A DNA stretch of 64,000 nucleotides from Branchinecta lynchi (Eukaryota > Arthropoda > Branchiopoda > Anostraca > Branchinectidae). Both the position numbers and the translations under genes were made by a program. The notes below the pieces were generated by a model that saw nothing but the letters and a program-made list of their open reading frames with translations, ran no database searches and was not told the DNA's origin. Location of the stretch: positions 16,446,849 through 16,510,848 of the forward strand of contig JAKZAP010000001.1 in NCBI GenBank assembly GCA_023053575.1. The letters run 5' to 3'. Positions 8,458 to 51,080 of the stretch are shown here, in pieces (within the stretch, counting starts at the first letter, position 1; each line of letters opens with the position of its first letter).

Positions 8458-9099
8458 TTTTTGGGATCCCAAAACGTAAGTGGAGGGATACTATGACATC
8501 GTAAAAGCTGTCCGTCTGTTAGCACGATAACTCTCGAAGGGAATGAGATTCTGATGAAGCTTGGTGTGAGGACTCTTTGGGTAGAGGGTAAGGTCAAGTT
8601 CGTAGATGGGCTCTGTAGCCTTACATTTAGGGGTGGGGTAGGGGGTTGAAATTAAGGGGCAAACAAAATATTCTTAAACAACTAATTTGATGGTCGATTA
8701 TGAGGTAAGAAGACATGCTGGAAACGAATAGGCAAAACATTTTCTCGTCCGACAAGTAGTTCGCCCGGAATCCGGCAAAAACCGAAAAGTTGGTTAAAAG
8801 TAAAAGTTTCATTTGAAGTTGATTAAATGTTCGATTTAGGGGTAAGAAGACATGTTGGTCACGACGGTGAAAACCATTTTCTCGCAGGACGAGTAGTTTG
8901 TCTGGAATCCGGCAAAAAACGGAAAGTTGGTTAAAAGTAAAAGTTTGATTTGAAGTTGATTAAATGTTCGATTTAGAGGTAAGTAGACATACTAAACACT
9001 TGTGTGAAAAGCACTTTCTGCCCGGACAACCAATTCGACCGGAATCCGGCCAAAACCGAAAATTTGTAAAAAGTAATAAGTTTTATTTGAAGCTGATTA

Positions 9100-9771
9100 T
9101 GTTAAGAGGATGGACGAGTGGAGGCGAGGTTTAATGAAGATAAGGCTCCTGGGGTGTGGGCTGAAGACATTCTGACACCGTAGGTGCCCACTAGCCCCAG
9201 GACCAGTCAGGAAACCGGACAAAAGAGACAAGGGAAAGTCTCAGGGAATTCTATAGCTCAGCCGCAGTCAATCCAGAAATCCCTAATCAAGCTGGTTCAC
9301 ATATCCTAGCGAAGCTGGAATTCACATATCCAGTCAAGCCCGAGGCCTACTAGCCGAGATGGACCATAACGTCTATAGTTAATTTATCTATGTAAATCGT
9401 GTACAAGAGTGTGACACATATAATATAGCACTAATGGGTCCCTAACTAAATATGTAAACTGGTTCTTACCATAAATTATAATACAGAGTAACGGAGGTCT
9501 TACTCCGACCAAGGATGAAAGAGAACTACTTTTGGCTGCCGATTCATTACGCAGCCAAAATACTTAGAATGAAATGGATCAAAGCCTGACCTCGGATTAG
9601 CGAGCAGCTAACTGAAGCTAGGATAAAGACCGAGTGACCTATTGTCACGATGCCGGGAAATTAATGATGGTGATGGAAACCGAAGAGATATATAGAAAAG
9701 TAGGCGATAGATGGAGGGAATAACTAGGAGGACTATTGCAGAGCAAAGTGCTATGGGATGTCTCCATAACA
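9100..9771 (-). repeat. 3' LTR
   Basis: 672 bp, TG...CA bounded with 5-bp inverted tips TGTTA/TAACA. I see no difference from the LTR at 12247-12918 when the two are read side by side. On the minus strand a TATA-like stretch (CTATATTATATG, about 9417-9428) could be part of the promoter. Confidence 0.9.
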
Positions 9772-9785
9772 CACCTCCCCCCCTT
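9772..9785 (-). other. Polypurine tract of the LTR element
   Basis: On the minus strand the bases abutting the LTR read AAGGGGGGGAGGTG, an almost pure purine run in the position used to prime plus-strand DNA synthesis. It fixes the element's orientation together with the primer-binding site. Confidence 0.75.
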
Positions 9786-9960
9786 GGGCAGAGTGGTGTA
9801 CGGGCAACAAAAGATTCTACAATGTTTCCATTCCAGCCCCACCTACTAACATACCATCGATAGCTAAGCCATCGCGGCAACCCAGGTTTCTGACAGAGGG
9901 GGCAATCAAATAAGTGTGAAAAATCAAAGCCCACTCTCTGTTCAGTTAGTTCAGGGTCCT

Positions 9961-10365
9961 TTATTGAGCTTCAGTCCTACTGACCTTACCCTGACCACAC
10001 GAACCAAACCAAGCATAAAAGTGGTCATGGTATTCTTGTGGTTGGTGAAAATCAGCTCGATGGGCCGGGTATTGGTAGGCGGGATATTGCGGTACTTGTG
10101 GTCGGTAATCAGGCATACACTGAGACCACCGAGACAAAGGTTCTGCCGGAGGATTGTCAAATTGTTGCGAACATTCATCTTCAAAAAATAACCGAGATGC
10201 GAGGGGTCGCGATGTCTGGGGTCGAGGGGCAGGGAAACGAGAAGGATCAAAAAAGTTTTCCATTTCCGAGAAAAAAAAAACAAGACCAGAATAATCAAGG
10301 GTATGAATGTCCGCAATAACAAAAACCAATCCAAATTGCCAAAAACACCAAAAATATTCGCTCAA
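9961..10365 (-). CDS. 134-codon ORF in LTR element, unknown function
   Basis: The only sizeable sense-strand frame of the LTR element. It sits just upstream of the polypurine tract, where full-length elements carry the end of pol or an extra ORF. The first 34 residues are hydrophobic and aromatic. From the internal Met at residue 35 the product is rich in Pro, Gln, Tyr and His (for example PQYPAYQYPAHRADFHQPQE). I see no zinc knuckle, protease triad or polymerase motif. It could be a relic of gag, a small accessory protein, or a chance frame. An overlapping minus-strand frame at 9951-10334 is equally unrecognisable. Confidence 0.3.
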   Translation of the reverse strand: MSEYFWCFWQFGLVFVIADIHTLDYSGLVFFFSEMENFFDPSRFPAPRPQTSRPLASRLFFEDECSQQFDNPPAEPLSRWSQCMPDYRPQVPQYPAYQYPAHRADFHQPQEYHDHFYAWFGSCGQGKVSRTEAQ

Positions 10366-11309
10366 AAATTCATGAGAGAAAGTTCTGACAAAAAAAAATA
10401 TCGAAAAATGTGAAAATAACGCTTACAAAAGTATATGGTTTACAAAGACAATGGGAACAAGCTCGACTGGACGTGTAAACTCAGACTAAACTAAGACGCG
10501 GAACCAACTTGATATCTAACCAATGTTTTTACTTCATGAGGGAAAAAAAATATGTGGCATGAATTAATGGCATCAACCTTAAATTTATTATCAAAAGAAA
10601 ATAGGCCAGAGGCTTCATGCGAAATCACCGCATCCGGATGGCGAATAAACACACATACGCTAGATGGCGATCGAAACGCAAGAAAACCTGAAAAAAAAAT
10701 GTGGTGGTGGGGGAGGGATGACAGAGGGAACGACTGGCGAAACGCACACTACGTCTATGTGGCAAATTACTACACACATTTAGACCGAAACCAGTCGAAA
10801 TTCGACGAAAATGTCACGAATGAAGTGCGATGTACATTCTTGAGAGAGTATCTATCTCCGCAAGAAAAATATACAAACAGATCACCACCAAACAAAAAAA
10901 TAAACTGGCCGATAGGGGAAAATGAAAAATTAAGGATAAGCCGAAAAAAATGCCACAAATAAAAATACGACGTCCCTGAATCACTCCATAGGGCTTGAAA
11001 ATAGTGCCATATAGACAACGTCGAAAACGAAAGGCGAGAAAGGTTGATCTTATTCCGAATAACCATAGCTTTCACGAAAAGAAAATTTTATGTCGGGGAA
11101 CTAAACAGAATAATCGTCATGGAATAATCGCATGCAAAATTACGTTTCCAGGTACGTGAAATATGAAATCATACGCGAATGCTAATTTATTAATGGTACC
11201 GCAAGCACGCATTGTCAGTGTTGAGAGCACTGATATAAAATAGACACGGCGAGATGACGCAATGATGTACCCCGGAGAATAAATTATTTTGCCGATGCGA
11301 TGACGATTA

Positions 11310-11845
11310 ACAGGATTTGCAGTCTGTGGCGCGAAAAACACTCACTTGACGACAAGTAGACAATAACAAATACTGAAGGGATGGACAAATCGCGATCTGT
11401 AGTGCGGCGATACACATACAACGACGACCGGAAAAATCCTGGAAGGCAAAGGGGCAAGGAAAAGAAAATCTGCAATCAGTGGCGCGACACACACACACAT
11501 GAAGACTGCAAAATTCCTGAAAAGGCGAAGAGGGCAGGAGAAAAGAAAATTCGCGGTCAGTGGCGCGAAATACACTCACATGGCGACCGGAAAAATCCTT
11601 AAAAGGGAAGGGGGAGGGACAAGAAATTTCTCAATCAGTGGCGCGAAACACACTCACATGTAGATCGGAAAATTCTTAAAAAAAAAAAGTAGGAGGAAAG
11701 GGGCAACGAAAATTCACAGTCAGTGGCGCGACACAAACTCACATGTAGACCGGAAAATTCTTAAAAAAAAAGTGGGAGGAAAGAAGGAAGGAAAATTCAC
11801 AGTCAGTGGCGCGACACACACTCACATGGCGACCGGAAAAATCCA
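11310..11845. repeat. About 80-bp tandem repeats in the LTR element leader
   Basis: Seven diverged units carry CAGTGGCGCGA...ACACTCACATG...CCGGAAAAATCC, starting near 11319, 11391, 11472, 11552, 11632, 11718 and 11800. A worn related unit lies near 10635-10700. The spacing varies (72-86 bp), so the array is not a coding repeat. It lies in the 5' half of the element, where packaging signals normally reside. Confidence 0.7.
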
Positions 11846-12223
11846 AAAAACTGTACAAGGGAAAACAAAAACAAAAGGATAAACCCGACATAAAATAATT
11901 TTCATATGTGAAGAAAGCCGACGGAAATATCAAAGAGCAAAAATGGAAAAACCTAAACCTACATTTTTGTTCTGGACTGACCGAGCTGAACCATAAAAAA
12001 AAATGAAATAAAATAAATAAGGGAGTTATTTTTATTTTGCTAAATTAAAGAGTAGGGCGGGTGGGTGGAAAAAAATTTAATTGTCGTGACCACGAACAAA
12101 AAATTTGGACGTGGGTCCTCCTTATTATGAAAAAATAAGGGCTTACAAAAATAAACTTCCCACTTCTGATACCATTGTTAAGAAGTTATCCCTGTTCTTA
12201 CACCTTGTTGAGAGGATGTGAGA

Positions 12224-12245
12224 TCGAATCCCACTTCTGACACCA
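12224..12245 (-). promoter_or_regulatory. Primer-binding site, complementary to tRNA-Leu
   Basis: On the plus strand TCGAATCCCACTTCTGACACCA lies one base from the LTR. This matches the T-arm and acceptor 3' end plus CCA of metazoan tRNA-Leu(CAG). On the element's strand it reads TGGTGTCAGAAGTGGGATTC. A second partial copy, CCCACTTCTGATACCATTGTTAAG, lies upstream at about 12160-12184 with LTR-edge sequence attached. Confidence 0.85.
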
Positions 12246-12246
12246 T

Positions 12247-12918
12247 TGTTAAGAGGATGGACGAGTGGAGGCGAGGTTTAATGAAGATAAGGCTCCTGGG
12301 GTGTGGGCTGAAGACATTCTGACACCGTAGGTGCCCACTAGCCCCAGGACCAGTCAGGAAACCGGACAAAAGAGACAAGGGAAAGTCTCAGGGAATTCTA
12401 TAGCTCAGCCGCAGTCAATCCAGAAATCCCTAATCAAGCTGGTTCACATATCCTAGCGAAGCTGGAATTCACATATCCAGTCAAGCCCGAGGCCTACTAG
12501 CCGAGATGGACCATAACGTCTATAGTTAATTTATCTATGTAAATCGTGTACAAGAGTGTGACACATATAATATAGCACTAATGGGTCCCTAACTAAATAT
12601 GTAAACTGGTTCTTACCATAAATTATAATACAGAGTAACGGAGGTCTTACTCCGACCAAGGATGAAAGAGAACTACTTTTGGCTGCCGATTCATTACGCA
12701 GCCAAAATACTTAGAATGAAATGGATCAAAGCCTGACCTCGGATTAGCGAGCAGCTAACTGAAGCTAGGATAAAGACCGAGTGACCTATTGTCACGATGC
12801 CGGGAAATTAATGATGGTGATGGAAACCGAAGAGATATATAGAAAAGTAGGCGATAGATGGAGGGAATAACTAGGAGGACTATTGCAGAGCAAAGTGCTA
12901 TGGGATGTCTCCATAACA
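12247..12918 (-). repeat. 5' LTR
   Basis: Identical-looking partner of 9100-9771, followed by the target duplication ATTA and then by the rest of the interrupted Family A unit (GATGACAGATTTAGGCGTAAG). Confidence 0.9.
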
Positions 12919-13330
12919 ATTAGATGACAGATTTAGGCGTAAGAAGAGATCCTGACTCTGTATATGACAATCATTTTAGTGCCGGACATATATTTCGTCC
13001 GGAATCCGGTTGTAACCGTTTTTTTTTTGTAGAAGCTAAAGTTTAATTTGAAATTGATTAGATGTTCTTTATAGGGATAAGGAGATGACGGAATTCGATT
13101 CTGAATTTTCTTTTTTTGCTGGACAAGTAGTTCGCTTCGAATTCGGCCGAAACCGGAAATTTGCCAGAAATAAAGCAGGAAGTTTCGTTCAGTCTCCTCA
13201 AAATAGATATGGCTTATAGAGGTATATCTGAACTTGGTTTTCTCTAATGATAAGCCTGGCGAAGACAAGACCCAGTTGTCTGGATCAAATATCAGATTCT
13301 TGGGATCTCATCGGAACCTTAGGTCGTGTT

Positions 13331-13826: not shown

Positions 13827-13828
13827 TT

Positions 13829-15040
13829 TTGGGATCCCAAGACGTAAGTGGAGGGATACCTATGACATCGCAAAAGTTGTCCGTCCGTCTGTGCGCACTG
13901 TAACTCTCGAAGGGTATGAGATATTTTGATGAAACTTGGTGTGAGGATTCTTTGGGTCAAGAGTAAGGTCAAGTTCGTAGATGGGCTAGCCCTACATTTA
14001 GGGGTGGGGGAGGGGGACAAATAAAATATTTTTAAACAGATAATTTGATAGTCGATTATGGGGTAAGAAGACATGTTGAACACGATGCTGAAAACTATTT
14101 TGTCATCGGAAAAGTAGTGCGCCTGGAATCCGGCCAAAACTGGAAAGTTTGTTAAAAGTAAAAGTTTTATTTGAAGTTGATTGTATGTTCGATTTAGGGG
14201 TAAGAAGACATGCTAAACACGGTGGTGAAAACCGTTTTATCGCCGGACAAGTAGTTAGCCCAGAATCTGGCCAAAACCGGAAAGTCTGTTAAAAGTAAAA
14301 GTCTTATTATGAAGTTGATTAGATGTTCGACTTAGGGGTAGGAAGCCATGCTGAACACAATGGTGAAAACCATTTTCTCGCCGAACAAGTAGTTCACCCG
14401 GAATCCGGCCAAAACCGGAAAGTTTGTTAAAAGTAAAAGTTTTACTTGGAGTTGATTAGATGTTCGATTTAGGGGTAAGAAGACATGCTGAACACTTAAG
14501 TGAAAACAATTTTCTACCCAGACAAGTAGTTCGCCCGGAATCCGGCCAAAATCGAAAATTGTTAAAAGTTAGAGTTTTAATTGTAGTTGATTAGATATTC
14601 GATTGAGGGGTAAAGAGATGGTGAATCCATGTATGACAATCATGTTTTACCCGGACATATAGTTCGGAGGGAATCCGGCTGGAGCCGGAAAATTTGTTAT
14701 AAGTTGAGTTTTTATTTGAAGTTGATTAGATGTTCAATATTGGGGAAGAAGATACGCTGACTTCGTTTTTGAGCTTTCTTTTTTCGTCGGAAAAGTAGTT
14801 CCGGAATTCGGCCGAAACCGGGAAATTGGCAGACGTGGCGGGAAGTTTTCGTCAAAACAGAGATGGCTTATAGGGGTAAACACACATGCTGATTAAATAC
14901 TGAACTTGTTTTTCTCAGATGATTAACCTGTTTTTGAATTTTAATAGTAAAAATGTTCAAGGAGTCTGGCGAAGTCAAGACCCAATTGTCTGGATCAAAT
15001 ATTGAATTTTCGGGATCCCATCGAAACCTTTGGTATTGTT
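13829..15040 (-). mobile_element. Family A element A2
   Basis: TTGGGATCCCAAGACGTAAG at the palindrome end (palindrome slightly damaged), tail, then six to seven 137-bp-type units of decreasing similarity, then the inverted 5' terminus ending CTTTGGTATTGTT. The junctions inside the Family D unit leave GTTCTTTT | TATACAAAGG, so the target was a T run. Confidence 0.75.
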
Positions 15041-20876: not shown

Positions 20877-21956
20877 AACGAGACCAAAGGTTTCGATGGG
20901 ATCCCAAAAATTCAATATTTGATCCAGACAATTGGGTCTTGTCTTCGCTAGATCCAGTCTTCGCCAGTCTCCTTGAACGTTTTTACTATTAAATTTCAGA
21001 AACAGATTAAGGCCAAATAGCTTATCATCTGAGATAACCAAGTTCAGATATGGAGTCAGCATGTGTGTTTACCCCTATAAGTCATATCTGTTTTGAACTA
21101 CTTGTCCGGCGAAAAAATAAAAGCTCAAAAACGAACTCAGCGTATTTTCTTTCCCCAATACTAAACATCATATCAACTTCAAATAAAAATTTAACTTATA
21201 ACAAATTTTCCGGCTCCAGTCGGATTCCGGTCGAAATTTATGTCCGGGGAAAAAATGATTGTCATACACGGATTCAGCATCTCTTCATACCCCTAAATCG
21301 GATATCTAACCAGCTACAAATAAGACTTTAACTTTTAATAACTTTACGGTTTCGGCCGGATTCCGGGCGAACTTCTTGTCCGGGTAGAAAATTGTTTTCA
21401 CAGAAGTGTTCAGCATGTTTTCTTGCCCCTAAATTGAACATCTAATCAACTGCAAATAAAAGTTTTACTTTTAACAAACTTTCCGGTTTTGGCCGAATTC
21501 CGGGCGAACTACGTATCCGGCAAGAAAACGGTTTTCACCGTCGAGTTCAGCATGTTTTCCTACCCCCATTAAAACATCTAATCAACTTCAAATAAAACTT
21601 TTACTTTTAACAGATTTTCCGGTTCTGGCCGGATTCCAGTCGAACTACTTCTCCGATGACAAAATGGTTTTCACCGTCGTGTTCAGCATGTCTTCTAACC
21701 CCATAATCGACTATCATATTATCTGTTTAAAAACATTTCATTTGCCCCTTAATTTAAAACCCCTCCCCCACCCCTAAATGTAGGGCTACAGAGCCCATCT
21801 ACGAACTTGACTTTACTCTTGACCCAAAGAATTCTCACACCAAGTTTCATCAAAATATCTCATTCCCTTCGAGGACGGACAGACGGACGGACGGACAGAC
21901 GGACAACTTTTGCGATGTCATAGGTATCCCTCCACTTCCGTTTTGGGATCCCAAAA
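20877..21956 (+). mobile_element. Family A element A3
   Basis: Starts AACGAGACCAAAGGTTTCGA, with foldback to GGGTCTTGTC at 20935. It then has five to six units of about 137 bp (near 21150, 21290, 21430, 21570), CCCCTCCCCCACCCCTAAAT, (GGAC)n at 21873-21903, TTTTGCGATGTCATAGG and the palindrome at 21941-21956. About 1.08 kb, uninterrupted, a good reference copy. Confidence 0.8.
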
Positions 21957-22060
21957 ACCTAATCTTGCATATTCTTTTTGTGTGTAATAAATATGTAAAA
22001 ATAAAACAAAACATCTCGTGAGTGCGTCAGAGTCAAATTTAGCTGTCCTGTAGTCTTTAG

Positions 22061-23435
22061 CAGGGGCGTCGCAAGGGGGGGGTGCGGGGGGTGCAGCACC
22101 CCCCCACCTTTTTGAGATTCGGTAAAATTTTGGGCCGGAGGCCCAAAAGTTTACCAAAATTGTTCGGTATTTTTTCGATTTACGAGAATTCGGTAGTTAT
22201 ACAGAATCCTAAATAGGCTATCTATACAAATCTCTTCAGTATAATGATCGGGATTCGGTATAATTGCCAGTATTCGGTAGTTATCACGAATTTGGTGAGA
22301 GAATTCACTGAAACCATTTGGTAATTTTTCGATGCCGGAACTATTTGGTATATTTATGGTGATTCCGCAGTTACACAGACTCCTGAATAAGCTATTGGTT
22401 CGGAATTATTCGGTGTCATGATTGGGATTCGGTAATTTATTCAGTATAATTTCTAACTTTGTTCCAGTTTCGACGAAAGTATACCGAATATGAATATTGT
22501 TCGGTAGTCTTTCGATACCAAAACAATTCGGTATACTAACCGGTATACGATGGTTATACAGAATCCCGAACACGCTATCGGTCTCAACTTATTCGGTATA
22601 ATAACTGGGATTCGGTAACTTATTCGTTGTAATTGCCAGGATCCGGAAGTTACTACGAACCTCGAAATTCAGAAGAGGTCGAGTGAAGCACTGGTCGCAG
22701 ACAAAAGGGATGATCTGTGATATCATCGATAGTCCTTACTTCTATTTTGGATCCCAAAAACAATATCTAATCATAAATATTTCGAAAATTCCGCCTGCAG
22801 AACTTTTCGTAATGTTCTCCATTTTGTGGAAGGGCATGTCATTTTACGGTTTTAAGCCAGTTTTAGGATTGAGATTTCGAAACATTAAAAGCTAGAATTT
22901 GAATGTAAATTAAATTTGGCAGGAAAAAGCAAAAAAAAATTTCGCCTGCGGCGCTCACTTTATCTTATCATAGGTTGTATATTGACTAGACTACAGTTGC
23001 TGCTGCTGCCGGAGAGTCGCTCCATCCGTTTTCTAGAACTTCTTAAGAGTCTCGGTATTTCATCAACGGAAAATGATACAGTTTGTAAGAGAAGCAGTTA
23101 AATTTTAGCCTACAAAAACAAAAAAAATGGATTTCAAAAATTTTCACCTGCGGCGCTCGATTTAATTTTCTATTGGCTATAATAGATAGCAGCTGTTACT
23201 GCAATCATGACCGGCAACGTATTCTCTATGTGGGCTTCGCCAAAACGCCGCCTAATAGTTGGCTTATCGTCGTTCATCCTGCCTTTTATTGTTACTCTTC
23301 CTACGCAAATTTCTGTTCCATAAATTAAAGCTCGAATTCTTAGTTCTAGGATTCGGTAAAATTTTTGAAAGATTCGGTAAAATTTTGGCTCTGCACCCCC
23401 CCCCCCCCACCAAAAATGCACTTGCGACGCCCCTG
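22061..23435. mobile_element. hAT-like element, 1375 bp, exact 8-bp TSD
   Basis: Perfect 15-bp inverted ends, CAGGGGCGTCGCAAG and CTTGCGACGCCCCTG, flanked by GTCTTTAG at 22053-22060 and 23436-23443. Poly-G/poly-C lies just inside both ends, and GATTCGGTAAAATTTTGG is repeated at both subterminal positions. The interior has three units of about 178 bp (near 22195, 22371, 22550). A Family A end remnant lies at 22712-22760, and TTTCGCCTGCGGCGC occurs at 22940. No transposase. Confidence 0.85.
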
Positions 23436-23623
23436 GTCTTTAGACTTCAAAAGTGGCACAGTTACCTAATTAAGCAGTTAGAAATTTCGAGAAACTCGGC
23501 TATTTGAAGTAAAAAATAAAAATATTTCAAATATTTGTAATGGTATCGAAAAATAAGAAAATAGACTGCAATCATTCAAAATAATAGAATAAGGTCTTGT
23601 TTTCAATGTGGGGTGACTGTAAA

Positions 23624-25041
23624 AACAAGACCAAAGGTTTCGATGGGATCCCAAAAATTCAATATCTGATCCAGACAACTGGGTCTTGTCTTAGCCAGAT
23701 CCAGTCTTGGCCAGACTCCTTGAACATTTTTACAATTAAAATTCAGAAACAGATTAAGGCCAAATAGCTAATCACCTGAGAAAACCAAGTTCAGATTTGG
23801 ATTCAGCATGTGTGTTTACCCCTATAAGTCATATCTGTTTTGACGTAAACTTCCTGACACTTCTGCCAATTTCCCGGTTCCGGCCGAACTCCAGAACTAC
23901 TTGTCCGGCGAAAAAAGAAAGCTCAAAGACGAAATTAGGGTATCTTCTTTCCCCAGTCATGAACATCTAATCAACTTCAAATAGAAATTTAGCTTATAAC
24001 AAATTTTCCGATTCCAGCCGGATTCCGGTCGAACTATATGTCCGGGTAAAATACGATTGTCATACAGGGACTCAGCATCTCTTCTTACCCCTAAATCGCT
24101 TATCTAATCAACTAGAAATAAAACTTTGACTTCCAACAATTTTTCGGTTTTGGCCGGATTCCGGACGAACTACATGTCCGGGTAGAAACTTGTTTTCACA
24201 TAAGTGTTCAGCATGTCTTCTTGCCCTAAATCGAACATCTAATCAACTCCAAATAAAACTTTTAATTTTGACAAACTTTCCGGTTTGGGCCGGATTCCGG
24301 TCGAAATACTTGTCCGTCGAGAAAATAGTTTTCACCATCGTCTTCAGCATGTCTTCCTACCTCTAAATCGAACATTTAATCAACTTCAAATAAAACTTTT
24401 ACTTTCAACAAACTTTCCGGTTTGGGCCGGATTCTGGGCGAAATACTTGTCCGTCGAGAAAATAGTTTCCACCGTCGTCTTCAGCATGTCTTCCTACCCC
24501 TAAATCGAACATCTAATCAATTTCAAATAAAACTTTTACTTTCAACAAACTTTCCGGTTTGGGCCGAATTCCGGGCGAAATACTTGTCCGTCGAAAAAAT
24601 AATTTTCACCATCGTCTTCAGCATGTTTTCCTACCCCTAAATCGAACATCTAATCAACGTCAAATAAAACTTTTACTTTCAACAAACTTTCCGGTTTTGG
24701 CCGGATTCCGGGCGAATTAATTGTCCGATGACAAAATGGTTTTCACCATCGTGTTCAGCATGTCTTCTTACCCCATAATCGACTATCACATTAGCTGTTT
24801 CAAAATATTTTGTTTGTCCCTTAATTTGAATCCCCTCCCCCATCCCTAAATGTAGAGCTACAAAGCCCATCTACGAACTTGACTGGTCCGACGACCCAAC
24901 GAACCCTCACACCAAGTTTCATCAAAATATCTCATTCCCTTCGAGAGTTATCGTGCTTACAGACGGACGGACGGACGGACAGACGGACAACTTTTGCGAT
25001 GTCATAGGTATCCCTCCACTTACGTTTTGGGATCCCAAAAA
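23624..25041 (+). mobile_element. Family A element A4
   Basis: Starts AACAAGACCAAAGG. Especially regular 137-bp units begin near 24227, 24364, 24501 and 24637 (CTAAATCGAACATCTAATCA). It ends with a (GGAC)n tract at 24963-24986 and TTTTGGGATCCCAAAA. The foldback pair ACAAGACC/GGTCTTGT is present at the 5' end. Confidence 0.85.
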
Positions 25042-25417
25042 CTGTTGGAATTAGTAAAATACGGAATTAATTCTACCTTTTTTCCGAAATTATAGAGTAA
25101 TCCTGGGAAGCTTGATAAATATCATTCTATGTTCACATTCGTCTGACAGAATTTAAACTGGATTGACCTGAAACTGCTAAAGTATGACCTAATTCCCCAA
25201 GCTACAGTCTGTTTACTGTCCCCAGAGTCATCAAATGACAAATTCCAAAGGATTTATTTATCCCCGTTGGTGACCCCGTTGAAAATATGGGCCTATTTTG
25301 GACGATCAGCAGCCTTTTCTGGATGCTAACGATGAATAGGACCAACGAAATAGCAACTCGTATTGAAGTTCTATTCAGTTCAATCCAATATAATCTAAAC
25401 AAGAGCTACGAGCTCAT
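25042..25417. other. Unclassified, no gene seen
   Basis: AT-rich sequence between A4 and Family C. The 66-codon minus frame (25202-25402) has no recognisable motif. Confidence 0.35.
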
Positions 25418-27248
25418 ATGGCACTTGTTACGAGTAGGCACGGCTCGGTTATGTCAATGATATATCTAGTGTTTGCTAGGTGTCTTCCCACCAAGTTTCA
25501 TCTCGATCCCTCCACTCATAGCGTTTTCCAATATTTCCGGTTCTCCCCTCAAGCTCCCCCCAAAAGTCACCGGATCCGGTCCAGATTTTAAGTGGGTCGT
25601 CTGAGGCATGAGGTCTTTCCAAATATCAATTTTCGTCGAGATCCGGTCACCCGTTCAAAAGATATAAATACCTCAAGATTCCGGATTCCCCCTCCCTCCA
25701 CTCCCCCCACAGTGCCCGAATTGGCTCGGTCATGTCAATGATGTATCTAGTGTTTTCTAGGTGTCTTCCCACCAAGTTTCATCTCGACCCCTCCACTCAT
25801 AGCGTTTCCCAAGATTTCCGGTTACCTCCTCCAGCTCCCCCCAAAAGTCACCGGATCCGGTCCGGATTTTAAGTGGGTCGTCTGAGGCATGAGGTCTTTC
25901 CAAATATCAAGTTCCATCGAGATCCGATCACCCGTTCAAAAGTTATAAATACCTCAAGATTCCGGATTCCCCCTCCCTCCACTCCCCCCACAGTGCCCGA
26001 ATCGGCTCGGTTATGTCAATGATGTATCTAGTGTTTGCTAGGTGTCTTCCCACCAAGTTTCATCTCGATCCCTCCACTCATAGCGTTTCCCAAGATTTCC
26101 GGTTGCCCCCTGCAGCTCCCCCCAAAAGTCACCGGATCCGGTCCAGATTTTAAGTGGGTCGTCTGAGGTATGAGGTCTTTCCAAATATCAAGTTCCATCG
26201 AGATCCGATCACCCGTTCAAAAGTTATAAATACCTCAAGATTCCGGATTCCCCCTCCCTCCACTCCCCCCACAGTACCCGAATCGGCTCGGTTATGTCAA
26301 TGATGTATCTAGTGTTTGCTAGGTCTCTTCCCACCAAGTTTCATCTCGATCCCTCCACTCATAGTGGTTCTCAAGATTTCCGGTTGCCCCCCTCCATCTC
26401 CCCCCAAAAGTCACCGGATCCGGTCCGGATTTTAAGTGGGTCGTCTGAGGCATGAGGTCTTTCCAAATATCAAGTTCCATCGAGATCCGATCACCCGTTC
26501 AAAAGTTATAAATACCTCAAGATTCCGGATTCCCCCTCCCTCCACTCCCCCCCACAGTGCCCGAATCGGCTCGGTTATGTAAATGATGTATCTAGTGTTT
26601 GCTACGTGTCTTAACTTAATTTAAACTTAATTTGTTTTTATTTCTTCTGTATTCCTTCTGTATAAAAAGAACCTGATGTGCCGACGAGAATACCGAGGCA
26701 CGACAAAAGCATGCAGAATTCAATTTCTTCAGTGTTTTGCCCGACAAACGTTTGCAGGATTTTATTTCTTGCATATATAAACACCCGATGTGCCGACGAA
26801 TCGACCGATGCCTGATAAAAAGCATACAAAATATTATTTTTTTCCCATCAAGTTTCATCTCGATCCCTCCACTCATAGCGTTTCCCAAGATTTCCGGTTG
26901 CCCCCTCCAGCTCCCCCCAAAAGTCACCGGATCCGGTCCGGATTTTAAGTGGGTCGTCTGAGGCATGAGGTCGTTCCAAAAATCAAGTTTCATCGAGATC
27001 CGATCACCCTTTCAAAAGTTAAAAATACCTCAAGATTCCGGATTCCCCCTCCCTCCACTCCCCCACGGTGCTCGGATCGGGGAAGTGACTATTTCCAACT
27101 TAATCATTTGGGGTCCCTGATAAGCCTGCTAAGTTTTATCGTCCTAGCTTATGTGGAAGTGCCCGAACTAGCAAAACCCGGACAGACCGACGGACGGACA
27201 GAAATTGCGATCGCTATATGGCACTTGGCCGAAGGGCAAGTGCCATAA
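25418..27248 (+). mobile_element. Family C element, 281-bp units and terminal hairpin
   Basis: Starts TATGGCACTTGTTACGAG. Five units begin with GGCTCGGTTATGTCAATGAT at about 25442, 25724, 26004, 26283 and 26566. The unit text includes CACCGGATCCGGTCC, GTGGGTCGTCTGAGG and CCTCCCTCCACTCCCCCCAC. It ends with CGGACGGACAG, TTGCGATCGC and a hairpin of 13/14 paired bases around GAA (TATGGCACTTGGCC GAA GGGCAAGTGCCATA, 27216-27246). The terminal words are inverted at the two ends. The architecture matches Family A though the sequence does not. Confidence 0.7.
26617..26850 (-). repeat. Family D fragment nested in Family C
   Basis: Inverted Family D text (GATGTGCCGACGAATCGACC, AACCTGATGTGCCGACGAG) interrupts the fifth unit of Family C. 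The interrupted unit resumes with CATCAAGTTTCATCTCGATC. Confidence 0.65.
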
Positions 27249-27528
27249 AAACACATGACAGACAAGCCGATGGGTTGTTTTTACGTCAAAACATAACATC
27301 ATAACAGAACAATCTACAAATATATATAATTTTGCGACATTTATACCGACGTCTTATGATAAATATGGTCAATAACATGCTAGACTACGATTAATAAAAT
27401 ACAAATAACCTAAAAATTAACATTCAAGAGCGCTCCGAGGTATATAAACGAACAAACGAGGGGACGAAACAAAGAAGAAACGACGAGAGCATCTTTTGGA
27501 CTGATTAATGCTGCATTTCTGGCAGCAT
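27249..27528. other. Unclassified spacer
   Basis: AT-rich, no frame of interest. Ends with TTAATGCTGCATTTCTGGCA, related to 20690-20800. Confidence 0.35.
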
Positions 27529-28787
27529 TTTTGGGATCCCAAAACGTAAGTGGAGGGATACCTATGACATCGCAAAGTTGTCCGTCTGTCCGTCCGTCCG
27601 TCCGTCCGTCTGTGCGCACTGTAACTCTCGAAGGGAATGAGATATTTTGATGAAACTTGGTGTGAGGATTCTTTGGGTCAAGAGTAAGGTCAAGTTCGTA
27701 GATGGGCTAATTAGCCCTACATTTAGGGGTGGGGGAGGGGTTTTAGATTAAGGGGCAAATTAAATATTTTTAAACAGATAATGTGATAGTCGATTATGGG
27801 GTAAAGAAGACATGTTGAGCACGATGGTGAAAACCATTTTACCATCGGAAAAGTAGCTCGCCCGGAATCCGGCCAAAACCGGAAAGTTTGTTAAAAGTAA
27901 AAGTTTTATTTGAAGTTGATTAGATGTTTGATTTAAGGGTAAGAAGACATGCTAAACACGATGGTGAAAACCGTTTTATCGCAGGACAAGTAGTTAGCCC
28001 ACAATCCGGCTAAAACCGGAAAGTCTGTTAAAAGTAAAAGTCTTATTTGAAGTTGATTAGATGTTCGATTTAGGGATAGGAAGCCATGCTGAACACCATG
28101 GTGAAAACCATTTTCTCGCCGAACAAGTAGTTCGCCCAGAATCCGGCCAAAACCGGAAAGTTTGTTAAAAGTAAAAGTTTTATTTGGAGTTGATTAGATG
28201 TTCGATTTAGGGGTAAGAAGACATGCTGAACACTTATGTGAAAACAATTTTCTACCCAGACAAGTAGTTCGCCCGGAATCCGGCCAAAACCGAAAATTGT
28301 TAAAAGTCAGATTTTATTTGTAGTTGATTAGATATTCGATTTAGGAGTAAAGAGATGGTGAATCCGTGTATGACAATCATTTTTTACCCGAACATATAGA
28401 TCGACGGGAATCCGGCTGGGAAAATTTGTTATAAGTTGAATTTTTATTTGAAGCTGATTAGATGTTCAATATTGATGAAAGAAGACACGCTGAGTTCGTT
28501 TTTGAGCTTTCTTTTTTCGCCGGAAAGGTAGTTCCGGAATTCGGCCGAAACCGGGAAATTGGCAGAAGTGGCAGGAAGTTTTCTTCAAAACAGAGATGGC
28601 TTATAGGGGTAAACACACATGCTGATTAAATACCTGAACTTGTTTTTCTCAGATGATTAACCTGTTTTTGAATTTTAATAGTAAAAATGTAGGAGTCTGG
28701 CGAAGACTGGATCTGGCGAAGACAAGACCCAATTGTCTGGATCAAATATTGAACTTTTGGGATCCCATCGAAACCTTTGGTCTTGTT
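27529..28787 (-). mobile_element. Family A element A5
   Basis: Palindrome (27529-27544), CGTAAGTGGAGGGATACC, inverted (GGAC)n as GTCCGTCCGTCC (27592-27612), seven 137-bp-type units, then the inverted 5' terminus ending CTTTGGTCTTGTT. Confidence 0.85.
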
Positions 28788-29354: not shown

Positions 29355-29622
29355 AGGAATAATCCGGAATGGTCAGGAATAACCCGGAATAATCCGGAAT
29401 GGTCAAGAATAATCCGGAATGGTTAGGAATAATCCGGAATGGTTAGGAATAATCCGGAATAGTTAGGAATAATCCGGAATGGTTAGGAATAATCCGGAAT
29501 GGTCAGGAATAATCCGGAATGGTCAGGAATAATCCGGAATGGTCAGGAATAATCCGGAATGGTCAGGAATAATCCGGAACGATTAGGAATAATCCGGAAT
29601 GGTTAGGAATAATAAGGAATGG
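29355..29622. repeat. 20-bp tandem array, left
   Basis: About a dozen copies of GGAATAATCCGGAATGGTYA, next to GGTGTACAT. Variation is confined mainly to the YA step and single substitutions. Confidence 0.9.
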
Positions 29623-29640
29623 TCTGTAATTTTTTCGGAC

Positions 29641-30016
29641 ATTCGTCATCCAAAATGTCATTTCACAACAGAGGTCTTCGGTATTCGTGACTTTCAAGAA
29701 AGACGAAGGTGTTGAAAGGCCTGCGGCCTAAAAAGATAAAGGACGTGCACGAATAGTGTTATATTACAGTGGAGACCAAACCTCTTTTGCGGTTGTCTCT
29801 ACAATAAGCAATGGTTATTTATCTCAATAAGCAATGGTGATTTGTCATGCAAATGGTTCCCCTATCTTGTAATGTTAAACAGCACTATAGAGCCGGCAGA
29901 TGACACAAAATGCCGTTGTTGGAAGGCAGTTATGTCGCACCAGAAACCTAATATCACTCACAAAAAAATACAGTAGGCTGGCAAGACCTATTACCGCTCA
30001 CACTTGTCCGGTGAGA
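29641..30016. other. Unclassified interior of the Mutator-like element
   Basis: No frame of interest. GGCCTGCGGCC and a CAATAAGCAATGGT doublet (29800-29845) are the only notable words. Confidence 0.35.
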
Positions 30017-32139
30017 ATAAGACCAAAGGTTTCGATGTGATCGCAACAGTTCAAATTTGATCCAGACAATTGGGTCTCGTCTTCGACATATCCAGTCTTT
30101 GCCAGATCCAGTCTTCGCCAGACTCCTTGAACACTTTTACTATTAAAATTTATAAACAGATTAAGGCCAAATAGCTAATCATATGAGAAAACCAAATTCA
30201 GATGTGGATTCAGCATGTGTGTTTACCCCTTTAAGTCATATCGATTCTGACGAAGCAGATCGAAACTTCCTGCCTTACTTCTGACAATTTCTCGGCGACA
30301 AAATAAAGCTCAAAAACAAATTCAGCATGTCTCCTTACCCCTACATCCAACCTCTAATATACTTCAGATTAAACTTTTACTTTTAATAAATTTTCCGGTT
30401 TCAGCCTGATTCCGAGCGATCTATACGTCCGGTGAAAATGATTATCATATGCGAGTTCAGCATGTCTACTTACCCGCAAATAGAACATCTTATCAAATTT
30501 AGATAAAACTTTTACTTTAAACAAATTCTCCGGTTTTGGCCGGATTCCGGCCGAAATAATTGTTCGGAGAGAAAATAATTTTCATATTCGGACTCAGCAC
30601 GTTTCCTTGTCCCTAAACCGAACCTCCAATAAACTGCATATTAAACTTTTACTTTTCAAAAAATTTCCGGTTTTCGCCGGATTCCGGGTGATCTATTTGT
30701 CCAGCGAGAAAATAAATTTCCTGTTCGGATTCCGCATGTTCCTAATTCGACTATTTCACTAGCTTTAAAACAATATTTTTTTTCCTTAATTTCAAACCCA
30801 TCCCCCACCCCTAAATATAGAGCTGCATAGCCCATCTTCGAACTTGACATGTACTTTGACTTTAGCTTTTGGGATCCCAAAACGTAAGTGGAGGGGTACC
30901 TGTGACATCGCAAACGTTGTCTGTCTGTCCGTCCGTCTGTAAGCACGATAACTCTCGAAGAGAATGATATATTTTGATGAAACTCGGTGTAAGGATTCGT
31001 TGGGTCGTCGGACCAGTCAAGTTCGTAGATGGGCTTTGTAGCCGTACATTTAGGGGTGGGGGAGGGGGTTCAAATTAAGGGGCAAACAAAACATTTTAAA
31101 ACAGCAAATTTGATAATCGTTTATGGGGTAAGAAGACATACTGAACACGATGGTGAAAACCATTTTTTCATCGGACAAGTGGTTCACCCGGAATCCGGCT
31201 AAAACCGGAAAGTTTGTTAAAAGTAAAAGTTGTATTCGAAGTTGATTAAATGTTCGATTTAGGGGTAGGAAGACATGCTGAGGACGATGGTGAAAACCAT
31301 TTTCTCGACGGAGAAGTAGTTCGCCCGGAATCCGGCCCAAACCAGAAAGTTTGTTAAAATTAAAAGTTTTATTTGGAGTTGATTAGATGTTCATTTAGGG
31401 CAAGAAGACATGCTGAACACTTAAGTGAACACATTTTCTACCTGGACATGTAGTTCCCCCCGAATCCGGCCAAAACCGGAAAACTGTCAGAAGCTTAAGT
31501 TTTATTTCTAGTTGATTAGATAACCGATTTAAGGGTAAGAAGAGATGCTGAATCCGTGTTTGACAATCATATTTTACCTGGAAATTTAGTTCGACCGGAA
31601 TCCGGCTGGAGTCGGAAAATTTGTTATAAGTTAAATTTTTGTTTGGAGTTGATTAGATGTTCATTATTGGGGAAAGAAGATACCCTGAGTTCGTTTTTGA
31701 GCTTTCTTTTTTCGCCGGACAAGCAGTTCTGGAGTTCGGCCGAAACCAGGAAATTGGCAGAAGTGGCAGGAAGTTTTCGTCAAAACAGATATGACTTATA
31801 GGGGTAAACACACATGCTGAATCCATATCTGAACTTGGTGTTTTTCTCAGATGACTAGCTATTTGGCCTTAATCTGTTTCTGAATTTTAATTGTAAAAAT
31901 GTTCAAGGAATCTGGCGAGGACTGGATCTGGCTAAGACAAGACCCAGTTGTCTGGATCAGATACTGAATTTTTGGGATCCCATCGAAACCTTTGGTCTTG
32001 TTTATTGAGTTGGGGCGACGCTGTAAAGAGTCCTCGTCCCAAGTTTGATCAAAATATCTCAACCCCTTCGAGATTTATCGTGCTAACAGACGGACGGACG
32101 GACAACTTCTGCGATGTCATAGGTATGGGATCCCAAAAA
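30017..32139 (+). mobile_element. Family A element A6, split by A7
   Basis: The plus-oriented 5' part runs 30017-30866. The tail (CAAAATATCTCAACCCCTTCG, GGACGGACGGAC, CTGCGATGTCATAGGTATGG, GGATCCCAAAA) resumes at 32003 and ends at 32139. The reading only makes sense if A7 jumped into A6. Confidence 0.7.
30867..32002 (-). mobile_element. Family A element A7, inserted in A6
   Basis: Complete minus-oriented copy from TTTTGGGATCCCAAAACGTA to CCTTTGGTCTTGTT, about 1.14 kb, with five to six repeat units. Confidence 0.8.
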
Positions 32140-37462: not shown

Positions 37463-38568
37463 TTTTGGGATCCCAAAACGTAAGTGGAGGGATATCTATG
37501 ACATCGCAAAAGTTGTCCGTCTGTCCGTCTGTAAGCACGATAACTCCCGAAGGGAATGAGATATTTTGATGAAACTTGGTGTGAGGATTCGTTGGGTAAC
37601 CGGACCAGTCAAGTTCGTAGATGGGCTTTGTAGCCCTACATTTAGGGGTGGGGGAGGGGGTTTAAATTCAGGGGCAAACAAAATATTTTGAAACAGCTAA
37701 TTTGATAGTGGATTATGGGGTAAAAAGACATGCTGAACACGATGGTGAAAACCATTTTGTCATCGGACAAGTAGTTCGCTCGGAATCCGGCGAAAACCGG
37801 AAAGTTTGTTAGAAGTAAAAGTTTCATTTGAAGTTGATTAAATGTTCGATTTAGGTGTAGGAAGACATGCTGAGGACGATGGTGAAAACTATTTTCTCGA
37901 CGGACAAGTAGTTCGCCCGGAATCCGGCCCAAACCGGAAAGTTTGTTAAAATTAAAAGTTTTATTTGGAGTTGATTAGATGTTCGATTTAGGGCAAGATG
38001 ACATGCTGAACACTTATGTGCAAAAAATGTCTACCTGGACATGTAGTTCCACCCGAATCCGGCCAAAACCGGAAAATTGTTAGAAGCTTAAGTTTTATTT
38101 CTAGTTGATTAGATAACCGATTGAAGGGCAAGAAGAGATACTGAATCCGTTTTTGACAATCATATTTTACCCGGAAATTTAGTTCGACCGAATTCCGGCT
38201 GGAGTCGGAAAATTTGTTATAAGTTAAATTTTTATTTGGAGTTGATTAGATGTTCATTATTTGGGAAAGAAGATACCCTGAGTTCGTTTTTGAGCTTTCT
38301 TTTTTCGCCGGACAAGTAGTACTGGAGTTCGGCCGAAACCAGGAAATTGGCAGAAGTGGCATGAAGTTTAGGGGTAAACACACATGCTGAATCCATATCT
38401 GAACTTGGTTTTCTCAGATGACTAGCTATTTGGCCTTAATCTGTTTCTGAATTTTAATTTTAAAATGTTCAAGGAGTCTGGCGATGACTGGATCTGGCTA
38501 AGACAAGACCCAGTTGTCTGGATCAGATACTGAATTTCTGGGATCCCATCGAAACCTTTGGTCTTGTT
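37463..38568 (-). mobile_element. Family A element A8
   Basis: Minus-oriented, with an intact palindrome and an inverted 5' end finishing CTTTGGTCTTGTT. The relative at 47440-47470 shows the pre-insertion text CCAATTTTTCTCTCTAG, again a T run. Confidence 0.85.
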
Positions 38569-45365: not shown

Positions 45366-45805
45366 TTTGTGCTACCTCTGTCGCTTGTATGTGTGTTGCG
45401 TGATTGACAGAAAAGAAATAAGAAAAGTAGTTTTCAGGTAATGAGCCAGCTTCCTCGAGCTGATCACTGACCACTGAAAAAGCTGCGTTTCTGTTAAGAT
45501 TCGAATTTTCGGTAAGCGTCATAGTAGAATTTTGCGTTGTGGGACAGCCGTAGATTTTCTTAACGTCATACTAGAGCAAACAGGAAAAAACAAAACAAAA
45601 ACCCCTTGAAGGACCTGTCTTATAATACTCGCACAACCTACTTTCATAATCACTGCATATATTTCTAAACCCGGAGACCCCAATTTCGTACGGTACTTTC
45701 TAACCCCTCTAACAAAACCACGCTCATTTTCTCCATTGCCGTCTTTTGCTACCTTCGATGTGTATCACGCTGTCGACAGTTGTCTCTGAGAAGTTTTTCC
45801 ATCAG
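45366..45805. other. Unclassified, no gene seen
   Basis: A 73-codon minus frame (45301-45522) overlaps the Helentron tail and has no recognisable motif. Confidence 0.35.
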
Positions 45806-45939
45806 AAAAGACCAAAGGTTTCGATGGGAGCCCACAAATTCAAATATATGATCCAGATAATTGGGTCTTGTCTTCGCCAGATCCAGTCTTCAGCACGACT
45901 CCTTGAACATTTTTAGTATTAAAATCAGAAACAGATTAA

Positions 45940-46030
45940 GGTCAGGTTCAGGTTCAGGTTCAGGTTCAGGTTCTTTTTAATAACAAAGTAAATAACAAAA
46001 TGTCCAGAGCCCGGCTGAGAATACAATCGA
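45940..46030 (-). mobile_element. Short LINE 3' end with (GAACCT)n tail
   Basis: Inserted between AACAGATTAAG and GTCTGAGAAAACC of A9, where other copies read straight through. On the minus strand it ends with about five GAACCT units after a TTATTAAAAA stretch, the form of a 5'-truncated non-LTR insertion. Confidence 0.55.
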
Positions 46031-46081
46031 CAATCGTCTGAGAAAACCAAGTTCAGATATTGATTGAGCATGTGTGTTTAC

Positions 46082-47635
46082 CAGGGGCGCCCCCCCCCCC
46101 TACGTTTTGGGCATTCGGTCAAATTTTCGCCGAAGGCGAAAAATTCGGTCAAAACGGGCATCGTGGCGAAGCCGTGATGCTCTATACATAAAATCTTTTG
46201 TCCCCGCATTTCGAAACTGGGTGATTTAACGTGTTTTTGGCTTCCCATTTTTTTTTAATCGAATTTGCTAACTCATCCAACTTTTGTTCACTCCGCATCG
46301 ATTTCACCGCATTCGGTCTGTCCCTTCGTAAATTCGGTGATTTAACCTGTTTATTTGGTCTCATTCGTTAGCGAACTCGGTAAATTCACATATCTGTTCT
46401 ATCACTCGGTCAGTCCATTTCATAATTCTGTCATTAAGTCAGATTTATTTGGTTCTGATTCCTGACCGAATACGATAATTGATCCAACTTTTGTTCAGTC
46501 CGCATCGATTTCGCCGCATTCGGTCCGTCCCTGCGTAAATTCGGTGATTTAACCTGTTTATTTGGTCTCATTCTCTACCGAATTTGGTAATTCTGTCAGT
46601 CCATTTCATAATTAAACACCATGAGATTCATTCGGTTCTGGTTCGTTACCGAATGCGGTAATTCACCGGATTTTTCTTTAGTCCGTTGGTGGTTCTAACA
46701 AGAGTTGTATTCCATTACGAAATTCGGTTGTAATACCGCTCTCGATCTGTTCCTTAGTTTTTTAGTTAGTTTTTCGGTATACTACGAATTCATTATTTGC
46801 TTCACCCAGTTACTGAGTTCGGTAATTTAAGTGGCATTTATTTAGCTCTCGGTCTTTACCATTTACGGTAGCTTCAGCTGGTTGCTGTTCATTTTTTTAC
46901 TTCAGGATTACTGCAGGAATACTTACTCAACACCACTTCACGAATAAGCACGTCTCTTGACGTGAAATCTAGCCTACTTTTGTTTGCTCTAAATTCCGAA
47001 AAAATGTACTTTGTATCCACTTTACCGTGGAATAGGTAATCTTGGGATCGCAGTATAAAGGCAATTTTATCATTAGTCTTTTCAAAACATTTCGCCTGCG
47101 GCGCATTTCGCAGTCTTCACTAGTTACACAAAGGTTGCCTCGTTTAGTTGGCGTTTTAGACTTGGAATTTTGAGGGGCTTGAACTATGTTAAAAGCTAGA
47201 ATTTGCATGGGAAGTCGTTAAATATTGACAAAAAAAAAAAAAAGCGGATTCAAAAGATTTCGCCTGCGGAGCCTTGATTAATCATGGACACAGCCGTTAG
47301 CGACGTTGTCTCTACGCAGCAACACCATTTTCTGCGATTATTTCAAGTCCTGTTGGCAAAAGTGCAAAGGTCTTGCACAGGTAGAAAGCCAGTGACGGCG
47401 TATCTATGAAAAAGAAACAGAAGCGGAAAAGCGTGAAAACGCGCCAATTTTTCTCTCTAGACTTGTTTGTATATACTCTGCAACTTGTTATGTTGTAGCT
47501 TCATGAAGTCAACTCGCTGTGTTTTTACAATTTTTTTTAATAAATTCAGTAAAAATCAGGTACCGATTCGGTCAATTTTACCAGATACACCCCCCCCCCC
47601 CCCCCCCCAATGAAGAAAGGCTCCGGACGCCCCTG
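46082..47635. mobile_element. hAT-like element, 1554 bp, exact 8-bp TSD
   Basis: Ends CAGGGGCGCCCC and GGACGCCCCTG, flanked by GTGTTTAC at 46074-46081 and 47636-47643. Removing it restores GTGTGTTTACCCCTATAAGT of Family A. Subterminal hairpins: TTTTCGCC-GAA-GGCGAAAA (46124-46142) and GCATCGTGGC-GAA-GCCGTGATGC (46158-46180). No transposase. Confidence 0.85.
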
Positions 47636-48138
47636 GTGTTTACCCCTATAAGTCATTTCTGTTTTGACGAAAACTTCCTGCCACTTCTGCCAATTTCTCA
47701 GTAAAAAAATTTCCGGCTCCAGCCGAATTCTGGTTAAACTATATGTCCGGGTAAAAAATGATTGTCATACACAGATTCAGCATCTCTTCTTACCGCTAAA
47801 TCGGATATCGAATCAACTACAAATAAAACTTAACTTTTAACAATTTTTCGGTTTTGGTCGGATTCCGGGCGAACTAATTGTCCGATGACAACATGGTTTC
47901 ACCATCGTGTTGAGCATGTCTTCTTACCCCATAATCGACTATCTATCACATTATCTGTTTAAAAATATTTTATTTGCCCCTTAATTTAAACCCCCCACCC
48001 CTAAATGTAGGACCTCCCCCTTGACCCAAAGAATCCTCACACCAACTTTCATCAAAATATCTCATTCTCTTCGACAGTTATCGTGCTCACAGACAGACGG
48101 ACATTTTTGCGATGTCATAGGTATCCCGCCTCCAAAAC

Positions 48139-50459: not shown

Positions 50460-51080
50460 ACTCTCAAAGGGGTTAAGAATTGAGATATCTTGTTCAGACT
50501 TGATGCAAGGGACGAGGGTTGTTTGGGCAAACGTACACGTCAAGTTCCCAGATGCGTTCCATAGCGCTATATTTACAAGTGGGGAGTGTTTCAAACTAAG
50601 GGCAAAAAAAATAGTTTATAAAAGCCAATAAAGTAGTTGATTTAAGGGAAAAGAGATAGGCTTTAACACATCTAAATTTGATTATCTTGCCAGGAAAATA
50701 GTTAGTCCGGAATCCGGTCAAACCGTAAAAGTAAAAGTTTTGTTTGAAGTTCATTAGAGGTTTGATACTGGGTAACGGGGCATGTTGAGTCCGTTTATGA
50801 CTTTATTTTCTCGCCGGACAATGAGTTTACCCGGAATCCGGCCAAAATTAAGATTGCAAATTGGATCCCAATTTCATTACAGATTCGATCCAGAAGTATG
50901 GAGACATGCTGGACCCGTTTCTGAACTTTATTTTCTTGCAGAGGAAACAATTCGCCCGGATTCCGTTCAAATCCCCCAAAAAGAAATTTTGCACCAAGTA
51001 AAAGTTTTTTCTGAAAACAATTAGAAACTCGAAACAGGGGTAAAGAATGCATGCTGAATCTATATCTGAACTTTATTTTA
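50460..51080 (-). mobile_element. Worn Family A copy
   Basis: Diverged units with CCGGAATCCGG, GTTTGAAGTTCATTAGAGG and CAAGTTCCCAGATGCG in Family A order. Termini are not recognisable. Confidence 0.5.

What the first reader, a model, noticed from the sequence alone, without database searches (positions are those of the whole stretch)
20877..28787. Family A: palindrome-ended, satellite-bodied mobile element, the dominant repeat here
Twelve copies (A1-A12) share a fixed order: a 5' end AACAAGACCAAAGG that folds back (ACAAGACC/GGTCTTGT) around GGGATCCC, about 137-bp tandem units, a C-rich block, (GGAC)n, TTTTGCGATGTCATAGG and TTTTGGGATCCCAAAA. Where the empty site is visible (A2 in the satellite, A8 in a hAT) insertion was into a T run with no long target duplication. 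Known elements with tandem cores and terminal palindromes include mollusc pearl-type elements and Helentron-derived HINEs; Family A resembles these in plan but I cannot match it to either. The mobilising enzyme is not in the window.
Basis: partly seen in the sequence, partly recalled or inferred. Interest (0 to 1): 0.75.

Follow-up and report, generated by a model that had tools for sequence, protein, structure and literature searches.

The report
Helentron-driven passengers carrying satellite arrays
A non-coding jumping element, present in many thousands of copies in this genome, carries a short ordered row of satellite-like repeats and inserts after runs of T; a matching rolling-circle (Helentron) enzyme gene lies in the same genome beside the ends of its sister family, so it is a new family of a known kind.

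Summary
In detail: twelve copies with common ends, a GTCC microsatellite and 137-bp units; the genome has 18,749 exact matches to the TTTTGCGATGTCATAGG box. Read on the opposite strand, the plan is that of Helentron-associated elements (HINEs). Six empty sites show insertion at T runs, with no duplication beyond two or three T. The five bases before the element are TTNTT in 73 of 85 junctions, like its own 3' end TTGTT. A sister family, B1, lies inside the given interval. The genome encodes Helentron-type Rep proteins; two near-identical Rep copies on different contigs part company right after a B-type 3' end, 40 of 40 bases identical to B1's. No Rep element with A-type ends was shown; the Rep element's 5' end was not reached. 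The units keep fixed slots: 33 of 38 copies on another contig show the window's order (shuffles at most 8). The terminal fold-back lacks covariation. Verdict: new HINE family, known kind.

The parts
8459..13330 (+).
   Evidence: empty site 17.8-18.16 kb
13827..15040 (+). Copy A2, in a 187-bp satellite array
   Evidence: empty site
20877..21956 (-). Copy A3 (units a c d e, then partial units)
23624..25040 (-). Copy A4 (units a c c c d e f)
25398..27251 (-). B1: sister element of the same plan, 281-bp units; its last 40 bases equal the 3' end of the Rep element on contig C4
27529..28787 (+). Copy A5 (units a b c d e f)
30016..32138 (-). Copy A6, most diverged, interrupted by A7
   Evidence: units 77-80% identical to nearest
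30867..32002 (+). Copy A7, nested in A6 (units a c d e f)
37463..38568 (+). Copy A8, in a hAT-type element 32418-38746 (units a c d e f)
   Evidence: empty site at 47.44 kb
45805..48133 (-). Copy A9, 5' end damaged, with a nested hAT-type element 46082-47635
52025..53159 (-). Copy A10 (units a c d e f)
53813..55373 (-). Copy A11 (units a b a b c f; inner 3' arm absent)
63261..64000 (-). Copy A12, cut by the window end
50636..51142 (+). Relic: four degenerate units, no recognisable ends
25025..25040 (-). Example (A4): 5' junction and palindromic 5' subTIR, TTTTGGGATCCCAAAA
24961..24988 (-). Example (A4): GTCC microsatellite
23971..24787 (-). Example (A4): six full 137-bp units (a seventh, partial, at 23861-23968)
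23624..23656 (-). Example (A4): 3' subTIR, ACC-TTT-GGT motif and CTTGTT terminus

Best explanation
Family A is a non-autonomous Helentron passenger (HINE). The Rep/HUH enzyme of a Helentron in the same genome cuts after a TTNTT-like pentamer at the target and at the element's own 3' terminus (CTTGTT), copies one strand, and joins it behind a T run without a long target duplication. In that orientation the element runs GGGATCCCAAAACGTAAGTGGAGGGATACC, ATCGCAA box, GTCC microsatellite, spacer, 137-bp units in fixed slots a-f, GGGATCCC, CTTGTT. The array travels with the ends; slots are gained or lost locally. Shown: common sharp ends, T-run target in six empty sites, target pentamer like the 3' end, slot order in two chromosome regions, Helentron-type Rep genes in the genome, one Rep element ending exactly like sister family B. 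Inferred: that this or a related Rep moves A, the cutting rule, strand-copying, and array changes by unequal exchange or slippage.
For: Ends: 0.91 identity in the last 30 bases against 0.25 outside (12 copies); 5' end 1.0 over 12 bases against 0.29 (10 copies). Empty sites: A1, A2, A8, L013, L022, L048: T5 in five, TTTTGTTT in the sixth; for A2 three of four satellite units have T5, one TTTTC. Left pentamer TTNTT in 73 of 85 distinct 5' junctions (TTTTT 66; background TTNTT 1.4%); 3' end CTTGT in 61 of 72, next base T in 69 of 72. Microsatellite: 11 of 11 strict GTCC arrays in the window lie in A copies or B1. Units: 65 of 69 hits in A copies, one orientation relative to the ends; slots; on contig C1 33 of 38 copies in order, shuffles mean 2.3, maximum 8. 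Rep: PF14214 gives 9 matches, three in open frames of 2787, 2783 and 1438 aa; VEFQQRGSPHIH in 3 of 3 of these, with the S that PMC4067079 calls diagnostic of Helentrons. C4 and C13 Rep copies share 3587 of 3588 bases around Rep and diverge within 3 bases of the B-type CTCTTGTT end, identical to B1 in 40 of 40 bases. Eight of eight B-type 5' ends followed by a microsatellite stand behind TTNTT (read off).
Against: No Rep element with A-type ends was shown, and the 5' end of the C4/C13 Rep element was not reached; A-type pieces occur in its shared leader, so its 5' type is open. The 3' palindrome of A is a 3-bp stem; folding of A ends is near random for most copies; neither the fold-back nor the subTIR/IR pairing shows covariation. 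A 2-base TT duplication cannot be told from a TT belonging to the element; A2 and A8 gained three T, not two. 12 of 85 left pentamers are not TTNTT. 5 of 38 copies break slot order.
Confidence: 0.95

Rival explanations
1. A MITE-like cut-and-paste element moved by a DDE transposase.
For: Short, non-coding, multi-copy, palindromic motifs near both ends; pearl elements were once filed as MITEs.
Against: Termini are not inverted repeats: 1 of 14 positions, 6 of 14 with the T run removed. No duplication beyond T in the resolved empty sites. Helentron-type Rep present with sister-family 3' ends.
Confidence: 0.02
2. Remains of one ancient 137-bp satellite broken up by later insertions.
For: 137-bp tandem units throughout.
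Against: Unique flanks start at the same base; empty sites exist; units group by slot across copies and contigs.
Confidence: 0.01
3. A canonical Helitron passenger (TC...CTRR ends, A|T target) rather than Helentron type.
For: Same enzyme class, no long duplication.
Against: Ends and target differ (the canonical definition is recalled); the three Rep frames with motif 2 carry the Helentron residue.
Confidence: 0.02

Closest known systems
Cg_HINE elements of the Pacific oyster (PMC7492417)
   Same: 5' subTIR and IR, GTCC/GTCY microsatellite, spacer, short array in fixed orientation, 3' subTIR and palindrome, T-rich target, no duplication.
   Different: 137-bp units (theirs 138-181 bp); the subTIR is itself a palindrome; 3' palindrome weak. 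Their authors could not relate an autonomous element to the HINEs; here one shares the 3' end of sister family B. Sequences not compared.
pearl / DTC84 / MgE of bivalves
   Same: Modular, short arrays of up to about six units, non-autonomous.
   Different: Unit about 160 bp; sequences not compared.
DINE-1 and mite HINE-Mo (PMC4067079)
   Same: SubTIRs near both ends, palindromic in the mite; IR in DINE-1; T-rich target without duplication.
   Different: Mite HINEs lack the IR; the 3' subTIR is 21 bases from the end here, 38-60 in the mite.
Helentron of this genome (C4:9641102, C13:6010539)
   Same: Ends in CTCTTGTT with B1's last 40 bases; Helentron Rep motif.
   Different: Its 3' subTIR is B-type, not A-type; it carries a ubiquitin-hydrolase-like stretch upstream of Rep.

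Membership tests
HINE (non-autonomous Helentron) | No coding capacity | tested here: met
   Longest closed frame in the window 206 aa, outside the copies; three frames of 120 aa or more overlapping A copies, one in the relic and one in B1: no Pfam match at E 0.05. Not every frame of the A bodies was scanned.
HINE (non-autonomous Helentron) | SubTIRs near both ends | tested here: met
   Exact GGGATCCC at 10 of 11 5' ends and 8 of 12 3' ends; with TTTT before it, 6 of 12 3' ends
HINE (non-autonomous Helentron) | IR complementary to the 5' subTIR | tested here: met
   7 pairs, 98.5% of 66 cells paired against 16-57% when slid; no covariation
HINE (non-autonomous Helentron) | Microsatellite inside the 5' subTIR | tested here: met
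   Strict GTCC arrays in 10 of 11 copies with that end, plus B1
HINE (non-autonomous Helentron) | Palindrome/stem-loop near the 3' end | tested here: inconclusive
   3-bp stem in 12 of 12; energies near random for most
HINE (non-autonomous Helentron) | Insertion at T-rich/TT sites without target duplication | tested here: met
   Six resolved empty sites; a short T-only duplication stays possible
HINE (non-autonomous Helentron) | Shares ends with an autonomous Helentron | tested here: inconclusive
   Met for the B-type 3' end; for A only the CTTGTT terminus and target rule are shared; flanks of the C15, C22 and C1 Rep matches were seen only as held in L071-L077
pearl family (bivalve) | Sequence relatedness of end modules | not tested
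   No pearl sequence at hand
DDE transposon / MITE | Terminal inverted repeats and fixed target duplication | tested here: not met
Canonical Helitron | 5' TC, 3' CTRR, A|T target (recalled) | tested here: not met

The most novel reading that the evidence does not exclude
One Helentron lineage moves several passenger families with unrelated subTIRs (A and B), because what it reads is the shared cut site (TTNTT at the target, CTTGTT at the 3' terminus) and the ATCGCAA-GTCC box, not the subTIR sequence; families could then swap ends and arrays freely.
Probability: 0.3. Interest if true: 0.6.

Novelty: new member of a known kind. Interest (0 to 1): 0.45.

Why it matters
In the oyster work the autonomous partner of satellite-carrying HINEs stayed unresolved. 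Here a young Helentron, present at two loci, ends exactly like one such family (B), which makes trans-mobilisation directly testable. The array of family A is a heritable row of slots that travels with the ends; that paper infers a single origin from fixed orientation, and slot order is a finer line of evidence that could serve to trace lineages of copies.

Tried and rejected
Viral contigs and genome contigs: 0 matches; those collections hold viruses and prokaryotes. Rfam and tRNA scans of the window: nothing. Paper search for six short stretches of A and B1: 12 papers, whose titles and abstract starts concern other subjects. Paper search with two repeat-end motifs from memory: 0 papers; not used. 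A 590-aa frame inside one A copy on C1 (L031) looked like a partner but is a LINE-type reverse transcriptase. Five copies without a 3' end in the stretch first fetched (L008, L009, L011, L018, L026) were read over 9.9 kb (L029-L033): only L031 had a frame over 269 aa. The fold-back as a maintained structure was not supported. A7-in-A6 and L032 were not usable as empty sites; the output was cut, so some matches were not seen. The 1196-aa piece around Rep gave no PDB match at E 0.01.

Full report
What was checked. The window (41% G+C) is dense in repeats; the longest of 24 closed stop-to-stop frames of 120 aa or more is 206 aa, and Rfam and tRNA scans found nothing. It lies in a 575.7-Mb genome of 216 contigs, at C17:16446849-16510848. 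Genome-wide the 17-base box has 9330 forward and 9419 reverse exact matches, control 0. With the median length of 39 complete copies (1197 bp) that would be about 4% of the genome if all were complete, which they are not.

Boundaries and target. Inside and outside identities are 0.91 and 0.25 at the 3' end (12 copies), 1.0 and 0.29 at the 5' end (10 copies). Empty sites resolved base by base: A2 in a satellite, A8 against the hAT copy nested in A9, A1 against a duplicate at 17.8-18.2 kb; on contig C1, L022 against L040, L048 against window 33276-33449 and two loci, L013 against window 36.8 and 45.3 kb (27 joined flanks tried). Five show T5; for A2 one of four satellite units has TTTTC. In L013 the site is TTTTGTTT and the filled left side reads TTTTGTT, so there the left T-rich stretch comes from the target. 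The gain is two T in A1, L022 and L013, three in A2 and A8; L048 has a changed 3' end and seven T and does not settle it. Over all loci and the window 85 distinct 5' junctions have TTTTT (66), TTATT (4) or TTGTT (3) as the last five bases; the other 12 differ; background TTNTT is 1.4%. The element's own last bases are CTTGTT. So target and 3' terminus look alike, as expected if one nuclease cuts both; that is inference.

Plan and orientation. PMC7492417 (Results in full; Discussion part 1) gives: 5' subTIR, IR, microsatellite, spacer, units, 3' subTIR, palindrome. The subTIR/IR pairing holds in 98.5% of 66 cells (16-57% when slid) without covariation. All 11 strict GTCC arrays in the window are in A copies or B1. 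B1 (25398-27251) shows the same plan with other sequences; its 5' hairpin is the only 5' end clearly better than shuffles (z -4.3, 100 mononucleotide shuffles; its 3' end was cut seven bases short there).

Structure claims that did not hold. The ACAAGACC/GGTCTTGT fold-back pairs in 84.4% of cells (30-50% when slid) but shows no change on both sides, and A11 and A12 lack the inner arm. DNA folding of A ends is near random for most; A3, A7 and A8 reach z of -2.2 to -2.4. The ACC/GGT stem holds in 12 of 12, two of three pairs invariant.

The array. 69 hits of a 137-bp profile in the window: 65 in A copies, 4 in the relic. 54 were compared; 15 dropped (8 partial, 3 in A12, 4 in the relic). Only 6 of 54 have their nearest relative in the same copy; identity within copies 0.739, between 0.745; same-index units are more alike, 0 of 1000 shuffles as high. 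Clustering gives the same order in 11 of 11 copies, but cluster names were ordered by mean position, and it resolves mainly the last two slots. The tree groups slot f (8 rows, 100/99), e (10 rows, 98/81), d (8 rows, 98/84), b (4 rows, 98/88), c (10 rows, 97/86) and a (10 rows, 89/86); units 1-2 of A1 and of A6 fall outside. A2 with A5 pair in 6 of 6 slots, A7 with A8 in 4 of 5. On contig C1, 39 distinct complete copies (603-2689 bp, from L001-L048) were labelled by nearest window unit; of 38 with more than one slot 33 are in a-f order, shuffles mean 2.3, maximum 8. acdef (8) and acccdef (6) are the commonest. Two of these loci share flanks with window copies (L016 with A6/A7, L025 with A9) and are not independent. 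L049-L068 were not used in this count. PMC7492417 speaks of homogeneity of arrays and of a single event in repeat formation; slot order is not discussed in the passages read; its supplement was not seen.

The enzyme. In the window, Pfam scans of 15 frames and X-read frames of most DNA between copies gave no match above a curated cut-off; eight weak matches below cut-off were listed, one of them to a Cas3-type domain whose family name includes helicase (E 0.13, 12.9 bits, cut-off 27). Not scanned: parts of A bodies and B1, short gaps, one frame of 22061-23435. In the genome, PF14214 (Helitron_like_N) gives 9 matches, three in long open frames: C4 (2787 aa), C13 (2783 aa), C15 (1438 aa); the others have stops inside or short frames. 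All three carry VEFQQRGSPHIH; PMC4067079 (Results part 1) gives S between G and P as the Helentron sign. Upstream of Rep the frame has a ubiquitin-hydrolase-like stretch (E 5e-11 to USP12). About 5.2 kb downstream of Rep in reading sense, C4 has a B-type 3' end with 40 of 40 bases of B1. C13 is 99.3% identical over the 140 bases up to that end and diverges within 3 bases of it. On C4 a B-type 5' end with microsatellite follows directly, so another B copy lies head to tail. Upstream, C4 and C13 are identical over the 1.58 kb compared, which lies about 1.4 to 3.0 kb before the start of the long frame and includes an A-type 5' part in the same orientation and an inverted A-type 3' part. So the genome holds a young Helentron whose 3' end is B's; A shares its terminus, its target rule and the box-plus-microsatellite plan, not its subTIR. 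That the two Rep copies arose by transposition rather than by duplication of a larger segment rests on the 3' boundary alone.

Age. A6 is most diverged (77-80% to nearest units) and carries A7, whose units reach 97% identity to A8's: activity over a long time. Ends are about 94-95% identical, spacer 91%, slots a, d and e 87-91% in seven copies.

Papers seen: PMC7492417 (abstract, Results, Discussion part 1, passages), PMC4067079 (abstract, Results part 1, passages), PMC5139131, PMC11136912, PMC8268682 (passages only). No claim that the family is absent from print is made beyond the two motif searches.

Noticed in passing
9100-12918: LTR element nested in A1: two 672-bp terminal repeats, 100% identical, TG..CA ends, ATTA target duplication, no Pfam domain inside: very young, non-autonomous.
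   Followed up: partly
22061-23435, 32418-38746, 46082-47635: Three hAT-type elements with CAGGGGCG ends and 8-bp duplications GTCTTTAG, CTTACTGG, GTGTTTAC; the second holds A8, the third lies in A9.
   Followed up: partly
13563-17806: Possible further hAT-type element holding the 187-bp satellite and A2; its flanks look like inverted duplicates of each other.
   Followed up: no
26616-26860: Piece of the 187-bp satellite family inserted in the B1 array, ending in a T run; the satellite may itself be mobile.
   Followed up: no
29355-29624 and 39223-39562: Two arrays of a related 20-bp repeat 10 kb apart.
   Followed up: no
19326-19625 and 56457-56756: A 300-bp segment repeated at 90% identity, overlapping frames of 181 and 133 aa, no Pfam match above cut-off.
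   Followed up: no
L078 1-3001, minus strand: The Helentron protein carries a ubiquitin-hydrolase-like stretch and a long run of charged repeats upstream of Rep.
   Followed up: partly
L031 6774-8546: LINE-type reverse transcriptase frame of 590 aa inside a copy of family A.
   Followed up: partly
L016 (C1:356500-359700) and L025: The A6/A7 nest and A9 have counterparts with the same flanks on contig C1, so they may lie in larger repeated units.
   Followed up: no
L001-L083 and window, A junctions: The base before TTTTT at A insertions is G in 34 of 66: the target may be GTTTTT.
   Followed up: no
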